Of a stretch of DNA of 64,000 nucleotides, positions 28,701 to 31,700 are shown piece by piece. Numbering within the stretch: the first letter of the stretch is position 1; every line of letters begins with the position of its first letter. The notes under the pieces were generated by a model. That model searched no databases and was not told the DNA's origin. It saw only the letters and a program-made list of their open reading frames with translations. Position numbers and translations under genes: made by a program. The stretch is from Beroe ovata (lineage: Eukaryota > Ctenophora > Nuda > Beroida > Beroidae), in the NCBI GenBank assembly GCA_946803715.1, contig CAMPET010000177.1, forward strand, positions 39,465 through 103,464, in the 5' to 3' direction.

Positions 28701-31700
28701 TTTATCTCGCTGTTCAATGTTTAAACCAATTACTGCTTGGAGGATGAAACTCAAGTGTACAAGACATTGTACAATATGTATTGTAAATCAATTATACTTG
28801 CTACTGTACGTGCACCTGGTAAGCAGGTCACGAATTCGAGAGATTGGGAAGATTAATAATGCGAAAGTTTGTTAGGTTTGAGCGAGCATATGGTAGAACT
28901 GTAGAAATCCATAATTGATCCTTGCGGTTAATTGATCGAAGTGGTATACTGTAACCAGCGTCGAAAGCCAGCAATAAAGTTTAAATGAACTATTGAATCA
29001 TGGATTCCTATCATTCATTTTGAATTTTACATCACATTTCACTCACCCTTTTCCTCAGAGACCTGAAACCTGAAAATACTGTCATAGACCTTCAAGGTTG
29101 TGTCAAGGTTTGTCATTTCAATCATTCCATATCATTCAAGTTCTTCATTTTCAATCAATTTTAGGAACTATTATATGAAAATCAAGCTGCTAATGGTTCT
29201 AGTAACATTTAGGGTGAACCATTACATGATCATAGCACAAAATGAAGAAGTAGATTCCAAATCTACATCACTGATTTTACTAGCTGTAGAGTGTAGATCA
29301 CTAGAGACAAAGAGAGAAAGAATATTATATAGGATTGTTGCTGAAGTTGGGTGTAAATCAAGTATCAGATTTCTCGGTTGAACCAATCCAGGGTCAGTGG
29401 CACACACTTACTTTGTTGAGAGAGTCGATAATGAAGTACAATGTCACAAGGGGTAACCGCGGATTGTGTTTGAGTCCACTTCATCTAGGTCGTGTACTAT
29501 TAATAGACATTGGGTGTCCTGATATAGGTTACACACGCTCAGCACTTCTGTGGTTTATGGGAAGGAGAGAGAGTGTGGGGTCTATTTTTAGGTGTTTCCT
29601 GACACCATGGCATAGTAGCATATCAATGTTGGATGAATCATCTGAGATGATATTGTGAACTGTCCTATATGGTTGTAAAAGAATGCTTTAAAGGCACTTA
29701 GTCAAGACTTCGTGCCGTGAATCCCACGAAGAGGAAATTTGTCTAGTAGTAAACTGTTGGCAACCTGAAAGTGCTCATTGTAAGCTGTCAATTTGTGAGG
29801 CGTTGTGAATATTCACTCTTCATCACGTCGTGGGGTCTGGTGTATGAGTGTCTGAAATACATGTCTGACTATTGAACTATGAATTACCGTTCTGTGATGA
29901 TCGAAGGGTTAGGTCACATATCAGAGCAATGCTACATTGTCAAGATAGATATAAACCAAATCACTTGTGATGAATCTTGCCTACTCGATAATCATGAACT
30001 ATATCATCGTGTAGTGCTGAAAGGGAACGAGACTACTAACCTCTCCTCATTTCTGGGTCATCACTCTTAACAGTTGTAATATTCAGAGTGACGCAAAGAC
30101 TGACAGTATGGCGCCTCAGGTGCCACACCATATTGAAACGTCCCCCTCGTACCTTGTGTGAATTCACATGAGATTTCTAATGATATGTGGAATGGTGCAT
30201 ATTTAATATTATATACTCACACGACACCCACTCACTCACTCACTCACTCACTCACTCTCTCACTCACTCACTCGCTCACTCACTCACTCACCTAAAATGA
30301 ACCATGCACACCACTTAGAGAAATGAATTATGATGCGAGACAGTTTCACAGTTTCATTAATAGATAAATACTTCCTCTCTCAATTTGCTACGATCTGTCT
30401 CGTGACTTTCGGGACTTTTATGGCGTCACAAAAACAAGCATTGCATCTGATAATCTGAATTCTTAATAACCAAACTGAAAATGGGTGTCATCTGTCATCC
30501 CAGCTGAAGTCTATCAAATTTGATAATGAGATTGTCAACTTCAATTGAGTCCATGAAATTATTCTCCCCGTTTATTGGTCACTTATGTTATTAACGTGAA
30601 GTGTGCTACTTGAAGGGAACCACTTTTAAACATGATTCAACACAAAGCATCAAGGAGTGTTTACATATTTCAAAACGACATATATAATTATTATGCGGAT
30701 AGTTGCTTACCAAGTCATGGCAGAGTTTCTGTAGGATGGCCCAGCACCACATACCAAGAGCCACCGTGATCTCACACATTCAGAGATCAATGACGGCGCC
30801 ACCCTGCATCATCTGAATCTTGTGTTGAGGTTACATACACCCTCATGATAGTAAGCCACCCATCAGAAGAGATGTCCTGAATTACAGGTTGTCTCGATAA
30901 TGCATGACAAGGGTTGCATATTTCAATTTCCAATACTGTGATATGATGAGATGCTCTCCAATATAGTTGCCCATCCATGGAAGGCCCTTAAAGTTCTGTC
31001 AGCAGCAGAATGTGGCCGTGTTGAAAATAATTGTTATCATCACTCATCAGTCATTTTGCATAGCGAGTTGAAAAAGGCCTCACAGCATTACCTCATCACT
31101 GTCTCATGCTTCACTCTCTCGACCCTTACTCATCACTCCCAAACAGCTTCAACACTCACGGCACATCATTTCGCTGCTTATCACTCACTGCTTAACACTC
31201 TCACGCTTGAATCCCTCACCGCTCCATCATCGTCCTTACAGCATACCCACTCACAGCTCACTTACAGCCCTGTCTTAGCAACGCATAACAAGTTCTTCTC
31301 AACAGGGATCTGAAACCAGAAAATCTTCTCATAGACCAGACCGGCTACCTCAAGGTAAGAATTCGACATCGAACAACTTGTAACAACCCACAGTCATCAC
31401 TCATTGGTCGGATTGTAGAGTTGAAAGTAGCAATGAAGTTCTGTAGAAAGGTATATTCGTAAAAGCGTCGGATGACAGGTGGAATAGTCTTCCATGAATA
31501 CCAATGAGTGATGCACTACCCACACATGACACACACTCACACACTCACACACACACTCACACACACACACACACACACACTGTACAGAGTAACGACTTTC
31601 CCACATGGTGGAAATTAACCGAAACTGTCTCTACGGATAGGAGGATGTTTTGTCATGATTTGGCTGGCAGCCAACAGTGTGAGATCACACACAAATATGC

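What the first reader, a model, noticed from the sequence alone, without database searches (positions are those of the whole stretch)
29059..31354. Two mutually exclusive exons for the catalytic loop of PKA
The PKA gene carries two 49-base exons, 29059-29107 and 31306-31354, each encoding RDLKPEN plus ten residues. Both have proper acceptors and donors and identical phases (2 in, 0 out), so including both would break the frame. One is canonical (NLLIDQTGYLK). The other (NTVIDLQGCVK) keeps the catalytic Asp166, Lys168 and Asn171 but changes Leu172-Leu173 to Thr-Val. Leu173 packs against the adenine ring in the catalytic spine. The switch could tune nucleotide affinity, inhibitor response or substrate choice of the same kinase. 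From memory, Aplysia PKA also has alternative exons in this region; whether they are related is unknown.
Basis: partly seen in the sequence, partly recalled or inferred. Interest (0 to 1): 0.85.

Follow-up and report, generated by a model that had tools for sequence, protein, structure and literature searches.

The report
Ctenophore PKA swaps its ATP-pocket exon
A comb-jelly gene for protein kinase A carries two alternative mini-exons for part of its active site, and whole proteins of both versions turn up in a related comb jelly, so one gene probably makes two kinases whose ATP-binding floor differs.

Summary
The window holds a PKA catalytic-subunit gene with two 49-base exons, 29059-29107 and 31306-31354, with AG/GT borders and the same phases. 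Either alone gives a 350-residue protein; both or neither gives an early stop. The gene belongs to a ctenophore: it groups with Mnemiopsis at 0.999 support.

New evidence is comparative. Full-length PKA proteins of a related ctenophore occur in both forms: P0008/P0054, and P0009/P0058, are identical over 349 residues except at six sites, all inside this exon. The alternative form carries L172T and L173V in both ctenophore lineages. The exon is therefore conserved and very probably expressed, not a dead duplicate. No alternative-form protein of the window's own species was found.

Molluscs and a brachiopod show another PKA pair: residues 139-181, other changes. The ctenophore pair covers 165-181 and looks independent.

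The catalytic loop itself is unchanged. The swap alters strands beta7-beta8, including the only C-lobe residue capping adenine. Most likely it tunes ATP binding and ATP-dependent binding of inhibitor or regulatory subunits; this is inferred, not shown. It is a new variant of a known kind.

The parts
25796..25838 (+). PKA-C first coding exon 1a (MGNTLPNKKGDPEH, myristoylation-type N terminus)
   Evidence: tblastn of the P0041 N terminus; joined CDS gives 350 aa with one stop
25890..25950 (+). candidate alternative first coding exon 1b (MLKQLLKGSGSKSNSQYPEI...), like the Mnemiopsis P0056 N terminus
   Evidence: tblastn with the P0056 N terminus; joined to the rest it gives 356 aa with one stop
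26747..26808 (+). PKA-C exon 2 (VKEFLSRAKSEFQERWDAPTK)
27046..27174 (+). PKA-C exon 3 (glycine loop, Lys72)
27410..27508 (+). PKA-C exon 4 (alphaC)
27675..27757 (+). PKA-C exon 5
27921..27998 (+). PKA-C constant exon, residues 139-165, ends in phase 2 inside Arg165
29059..29107 (+). alternative mutually exclusive exon, (R)DLKPENTVIDLQGCVK, residues 165-181
   Evidence: same kind of segment in P0008-P0010
31306..31354 (+). canonical mutually exclusive exon, (R)DLKPENLLIDQTGYLK, residues 165-181
   Evidence: P0041 and Mnemiopsis P0056 carry exactly this
36582..36800 (+). PKA-C exon beginning VTDFGFAKR (DFG, activation loop)
36938..37102 (+). PKA-C exon, C-lobe
37211..37336 (+). last PKA-C coding exon, C-tail, stop TAG

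Best explanation
Exons 29059-29107 and 31306-31354 are an old, tandemly duplicated pair of mutually exclusive exons in a ctenophore PKA catalytic-subunit gene, the best PKA match in its genome. Shown: correct splice borders, identical phases, an early stop with both or none, and full-length proteins of both kinds in a related ctenophore. Inferred: those proteins come from spliced mRNA of one gene. Inferred: exclusivity is enforced by frame (decay of double or zero inclusion) plus regulated choice, the alternative exon having the weaker-looking donor. Inferred: the alternative kinase is active, because Asp166, Lys168, Asn171 and the DFG exon are kept, but L172T and L173V alter the floor of the adenine pocket. 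That should lower ATP affinity and loosen the ATP-dependent tight grip of PKI and type-I regulatory subunits, giving a PKA isoform released at lower cAMP or less sensitive to pseudosubstrates.
For: Anatomy. Both forms in a relative: P0008 vs P0054 and P0009 vs P0058 differ at 6 of 349 residues, all in the exon; each pair also shares its residues at variable sites 24, 65, 68 and 297. Ctenophore identity: window, P0041, P0036, Mnemiopsis P0056, P0008/P0054 and P0009/P0058 form one clade at 0.999 support in a tree made without the exon. Constraint: window alternative vs P0009 differ at 2 of 17 exon residues and 27 of the other 298 core residues. Signature: T172 occurs in 3 of 267 readable PKA-like hits (these three) and V173 in 4 of 267 (these three plus aphid P0098); 2 of 269 were not read by the motif. 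Role of L173: PMC11616992 passages call it the only C-lobe adenine-capping residue and say L173A blocks yeast viability and disrupts synergistic ATP and inhibitor binding. The AlphaFold2 model of P0009 keeps beta7-beta8 (block pLDDT 92) and matches PKA crystal structures at TM 0.94.
Against: No alternative-form protein was found for the window's own species; its near-identical P0041 is canonical. A second search with the P0009 exon added no further alternative form among its 120 listed of 655 hits. The Mnemiopsis representative is canonical, and the other members of its cluster of 24 could not be seen. The two-form proteins come from unnamed collections; that they derive from RNA is inferred from intron-free frames on about 2.1-2.2-kb contigs. 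Three more canonical proteins (P0053, P0055, P0059) carry other mixes of the variable sites or an extra change, so the variants are not strictly linked. No kinetic data exist; Val at 173 is a mild change, so the effect may be small. No intron pairing beyond chance was seen.
Confidence: 0.78

Rival explanations
1. The two forms are made by two nearly identical genes, not by splicing of one.
For: The relative's genome was not available, so P0008/P0054 and P0009/P0058 were not placed on one gene.
Against: In the window both exons sit in one gene. The relative's pairs are identical outside the exon. Two other PKA-like hits of this genome (L009, L010; two of many kinase hits) read across residue 165 without an intron there and differ elsewhere.
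Confidence: 0.08
2. In the window's species the 29059-29107 exon is a dying relic, although it is used in relatives.
For: No alternative-form protein of this species was seen; its donor (gtttgt) departs from the usual gtaagt type; C179 is unlike the W179 of the relative.
Against: Open frame, correct borders and phases, and 15 of 17 residues kept, including T172 and V173.
Confidence: 0.1
3. The alternative exon makes a catalytically weak or dead PKA that acts as a decoy for regulatory subunits or anchoring proteins.
For: Changes of the C-spine can kill the kinase: L173A blocks yeast viability (PMC11616992 passages); Phe mutations of other C-spine residues inactivate PKC and Akt (PMC12721161 passages).
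Against: The invariant catalytic residues are kept, V173 is hydrophobic and occurs in P0098, and the predicted fold is intact.
Confidence: 0.15
4. The pair is the same ancient exon pair as in Aplysia and other lophotrochozoans.
For: Same gene, same downstream border (residue 181), overlapping residues.
Against: The lophotrochozoan pairs differ across 139-181, with shared changes at 153, 154 (F to L), 159 (to H) and 163 (to M). In the ctenophore these residues lie in the constant exon. None of the 5 lophotrochozoan pairs compared shows T172 or V173.
Confidence: 0.05

Closest known systems
Aplysia PKA-C alternative internal cassettes A1/A2 (recalled, Beushausen et al. 1988; the paper was not available)
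   Same: Alternative exons in the PKA catalytic core that include the catalytic loop.
   Different: From memory the Aplysia cassette covers about residues 142-183. The exon here covers 165-181, behind an additional intron, and the changed residues differ from those in the mollusc proteins seen here.
Lophotrochozoan PKA-C pair (Haliotis X3/X4, Lingula X3/X8, Dreissena, Mytilus, Pinctada, Mya), seen here in proteins only
   Same: One of two versions of a segment ending at residue 181 is used; gene models that join both copies exist (P0004-P0007).
   Different: Segment of 43 residues (139-181; exon borders inferred from proteins, no DNA seen) with recurrent changes in helix alphaE (153, 154, 159, 163); L173 unchanged in the 5 pairs compared.
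PRKACA/PRKACB splice variants of vertebrates
   Same: Alternative first exons; the window gene also has two candidate first exons.
   Different: The vertebrate variants named in the passages seen are 5' exons, small exons a-c and exon-4 skipping, not exon exchange (PMC3625193 passages).
Engineered PKA pocket mutants such as PKAB3 (V123A, L173M, Q181K; PDB 3l9m)
   Same: Residue 173 changed, at the ATP pocket; title seen.
   Different: Laboratory mutant (to mimic PKB, recalled); here a natural L173V with L172T chosen by splicing.

Membership tests
Mutually exclusive exon pair | Adjacent homologous exons in one gene | tested here: met
   34 of 49 bases and 11 of 17 residues identical, 2,198 bases apart
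Mutually exclusive exon pair | Same phases, and each alone restores the frame | tested here: met
   Phase 2 in, 0 out; 350 aa with either
Mutually exclusive exon pair | Both or neither gives a broken product | tested here: met
   Stop at codon 205 or 166
Mutually exclusive exon pair | Each exon used singly in transcripts | tested here: inconclusive
   Proteins of both kinds in a related ctenophore (P0008/P0054, P0009/P0058), RNA origin inferred; in the window's own species only a near-identical canonical protein, P0041
Mutually exclusive exon pair | Junction reads show no double inclusion | not testable with these tools
   No RNA-seq reads available
PKA catalytic subunit | Full kinase domain and C-tail closest to PKA-C; Asp166, Lys168, Asn171 and DFG kept | tested here: met
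   The canonical form (the one searched) matches PKA-C alpha chains at E about 1e-185 over chain residues 37-351; the alternative form keeps the same motifs
Aplysia/lophotrochozoan PKA exon pair | Exchanged segment spans residues 139-181 | tested here: not met
   Here the exchanged exon spans 165-181; 139-165 is constant
Aplysia/lophotrochozoan PKA exon pair | Shared changes F154L, 159H, 163M in one version | tested here: not met
   The ctenophore constant exon reads LAFEYLHNLDIVY in both forms
Pseudokinase | Loss of an invariant catalytic residue | tested here: not met
   RDLKPEN and DFG intact in the alternative form; activity itself was not measured

The most novel reading that the evidence does not exclude
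Ctenophores evolved, independently of lophotrochozoans, a splicing switch that retunes the catalytic spine of PKA. By exchanging Leu172-Leu173 for Thr-Val, one gene yields a kinase whose ATP-coupled inhibition by PKI and type-I regulatory subunits is weakened, which sets the cAMP threshold by alternative splicing in an animal lineage with a very divergent nervous system.
Probability: 0.3. Interest if true: 0.85.

Novelty: new variant of a known kind. Interest (0 to 1): 0.63.

Why it matters
PKA is the reference kinase, and the papers seen describe residue 173 as always hydrophobic, Leu or Met in the AGC kinases compared. A conserved natural pair of forms that differs only in six residues around the adenine pocket is a ready-made experiment on how the C-spine sets nucleotide affinity and ATP-coupled inhibition. 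Two animal groups apparently hit on exon exchange in the same part of the same kinase, with different extents, which suggests that tuning this region by splicing is worthwhile.

Tried and rejected
Docking/selector RNA pairing between the three introns: the longest exact complementary runs (12-13 bases) are within the maxima of 40 shuffles (14-17); only exact, ungapped runs were tested. Repeated copies in Oppiella P0001, Ixodes P0002 and Ostertagia P0003 were first taken as exon pairs. The copies carry the same exon residues (P0001's first copy is cut short) and lie in rearranged models, so they look like assembly or annotation errors and were set aside. Organism by 18S: not completed. Third copy of the exon in the window: none. 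PKA-like paralogs with the same pair: two loci inspected of the many kinase hits, neither has an intron at 165. Structure models of the two forms (30-row alignments) have the same overall fold but cannot show a pocket effect. The canonical one is poorer around residues 161-170 and 187-198 (block pLDDT 60, and under 50), so fine differences between them mean nothing; only the P0009 model was searched against PDB.

Papers. No ctenophore PKA exon pair appeared in the listings (10 papers; 1; 10 shown of 2,166); abstract starts only. No open-access account of the Aplysia cassettes appeared; one search shows, in a reference list, two Beushausen papers on other Aplysia PKA forms. Passages were seen of PMC3625193, PMC10936040, PMC11616992, PMC12721161, PMC2724707, PMC12608923, PMC5176290 and PMC5526564; none was read whole. 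Absence from print is claimed only for these searches.

Full report
What is there. The + strand of the window from about 25.8 to 37.3 kb holds a complete gene for the catalytic subunit of cAMP-dependent protein kinase. Joined exons give 350 residues with a single terminal stop, and the canonical core matches PKA-C alpha crystal chains end to end (chain residues 37-351). Between constant exon 27921-27998 and constant exon 36582-36800 lie two 49-base exons, 29059-29107 and 31306-31354. Their borders are cctcag|A...AAG|gtttgt and caacag|G...AAG|gtaaga. Both are entered in phase 2 and left in phase 0. Either one alone restores the frame; both together give a stop at codon 205, and neither gives one at codon 166. 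No third copy was found in the window.

How old and how constrained. The exons match at 34 of 49 bases; ten codons differ, four silently (R165, D166, P169, G178) and six with a residue change. The 500-base flanks show no similarity above 200 shuffles, so the duplication is not recent. Two other PKA-like loci of this genome, of the many kinase hits, read straight across residue 165 (L009, L010).

Which animal. The closest named protein is Mnemiopsis leidyi P0056 (11 differences in the 315-residue core). The unnamed P0041 is identical to the window's canonical form over that core and differs at 2 of 350 residues overall. A tree built without the exon puts window, P0041, P0036, Mnemiopsis, P0008/P0054 and P0009/P0058 in one clade with support 0.999; deeper nodes are weakly supported. 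The window is therefore a ctenophore. The species was not identified because the 18S search did not complete.

The decisive comparison. A search with the alternative exon and its surroundings (977 hits, best 120 listed) brought up P0008, P0009 and P0010, full-length proteins from contigs of about 2.1-2.2 kb, reading NTVIDLMGWVK. They belong to a ctenophore lineage 29 of 315 residues away from the window's. P0008 and P0054 are identical over 349 residues except L172T, L173V, D176L, T177M, Y179W and L180V. P0009 and P0058 differ at exactly the same six sites. Each pair shares its residues at the variable sites 24, 65, 68 and 297, as expected if splicing of one gene makes both. Three more canonical proteins, P0053, P0055 and P0059, carry other mixes at these sites or an extra change, as allelic variation would give. 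Of the 11 ctenophore proteins compared, 3 carry the alternative segment and 8 the canonical one. Between the two lineages the alternative exon keeps 15 of 17 residues while the rest of the core keeps 271 of 298, so it is held about as tightly as the kinase itself.

Against this reading. No alternative-form protein of the window's own species was found. A second search with P0009's exon (655 hits, 120 listed) added no further alternative form. The other members of the 24-member Mnemiopsis cluster are hidden. The RNA origin of the unnamed proteins is inferred from intron-free frames, not stated in the output.

What changes. Numbering follows mature mammalian PKA. RDLKPEN (165-171) is the same in both exons, so the catalytic loop proper is untouched; the six changed residues lie on beta7-beta8. 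Passages of PMC11616992 and PMC12721161 state that L173 is the single C-lobe residue capping the adenine ring. PMC11616992 adds that L172 and I174 tie it to helix alphaE and the hydrophobic core, and that L173A blocks yeast viability and disrupts synergistic ATP and inhibitor binding. Among 267 PKA-like hits of three searches that the motif could read (2 of 269 it could not), Thr172 occurs in 3, all of them these forms, and Val173 in 4: these three and aphid P0098. That sample consists of the best-listed hits, is biased towards the queries and holds several isoforms of the same gene. AlphaFold2 models of both forms keep the kinase fold, with block pLDDT 92-93 over residues 171-180. Other stretches, above all residues 161-170 and 187-198 of the canonical model, are poor. 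The alternative model matches PKA crystal structures at TM 0.94. The models cannot show an effect on ATP.

How it probably works. The frame rule makes the exons exclusive at the protein level. The choice itself must be regulated in some way: the exons are 2.2 kb apart, too far for steric exclusion (established knowledge), the donors are GT, and no exact intron pairing beyond chance was seen. The product is most likely an active kinase with a slightly smaller, more polar floor under adenine. Because PKI and type-I regulatory subunits bind tightly only with MgATP (established knowledge), weaker adenine capping would lower ATP affinity and loosen this inhibition. This last step is inference.

Relation to known cases. 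In molluscs and a brachiopod the proteins found here show a different pair. Haliotis rubra X3/X4 differ only within residues 141-181, and Lingula X3/X8 within 139-181 apart from their N termini. Bivalve gene models P0004-P0007 contain both copies in a row, the first copy cut short in P0006 and P0007. Annelid P0125 and P0129 carry the alternative-type sequence; no annelid pair was seen. The recurrent changes in the 5 pairs compared are 153V, F154L, 159H and 163M, and none touches L173. Exon borders are inferred from proteins, and the lists were capped at 120. This agrees with my memory of the Aplysia A1/A2 cassettes, whose paper was not available. The ctenophore pair uses a shorter exon, different residues, and a constant 139-165. 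Similar use with separate origin is the best reading. A 2013 survey reports an extra intron within vertebrate exon 6 of the sponge Amphimedon (PMC3625193, passages). I take that exon, from memory, to be about residues 140-181; whether the sponge intron lies at codon 165 was not testable here.

Noticed in passing
window 27473-27568: A perfect 51-base direct repeat with a 45-base period duplicates the end of PKA exon 27410-27508 together with its donor, so a second donor exists 45 bases downstream; an exon ending at 27553 would add 15 residues in frame. P0041 lacks the insertion. Recent duplication or assembly effect unknown.
   Followed up: partly
window 25796-25838 and 25890-25950: Two candidate first coding exons, one MGN-type and one MLKQLLKGSGSK-type resembling the Mnemiopsis P0056 N terminus; both join in frame. 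P0010 shows yet another N terminus joined to the alternative core exon.
   Followed up: partly
window about 61200-63130, - strand: Exon-wise tblastn matches to another protein kinase (ENLLLDDQQNLKLIDFGLASK, TCCGSPAYAAPGI, WSMGVLLYALLCGFLPFDDDN; only the last is statistically strong), perhaps a MELK/CAMK-type gene (label recalled).
   Followed up: no
proteins P0004-P0007, P0193/P0134, P0142/P0197, P0205/P0267, P0125, P0129: A pair for PKA residues 139-181 occurs in several molluscs and a brachiopod; its alternative-type sequence also occurs in two annelids. Four bivalve gene models include both copies.
   Followed up: partly
proteins P0001-P0003 (Oppiella, Ixodes, Ostertagia): Public PKA models with repeated near-identical segments, probably assembly or annotation errors.
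   Followed up: partly
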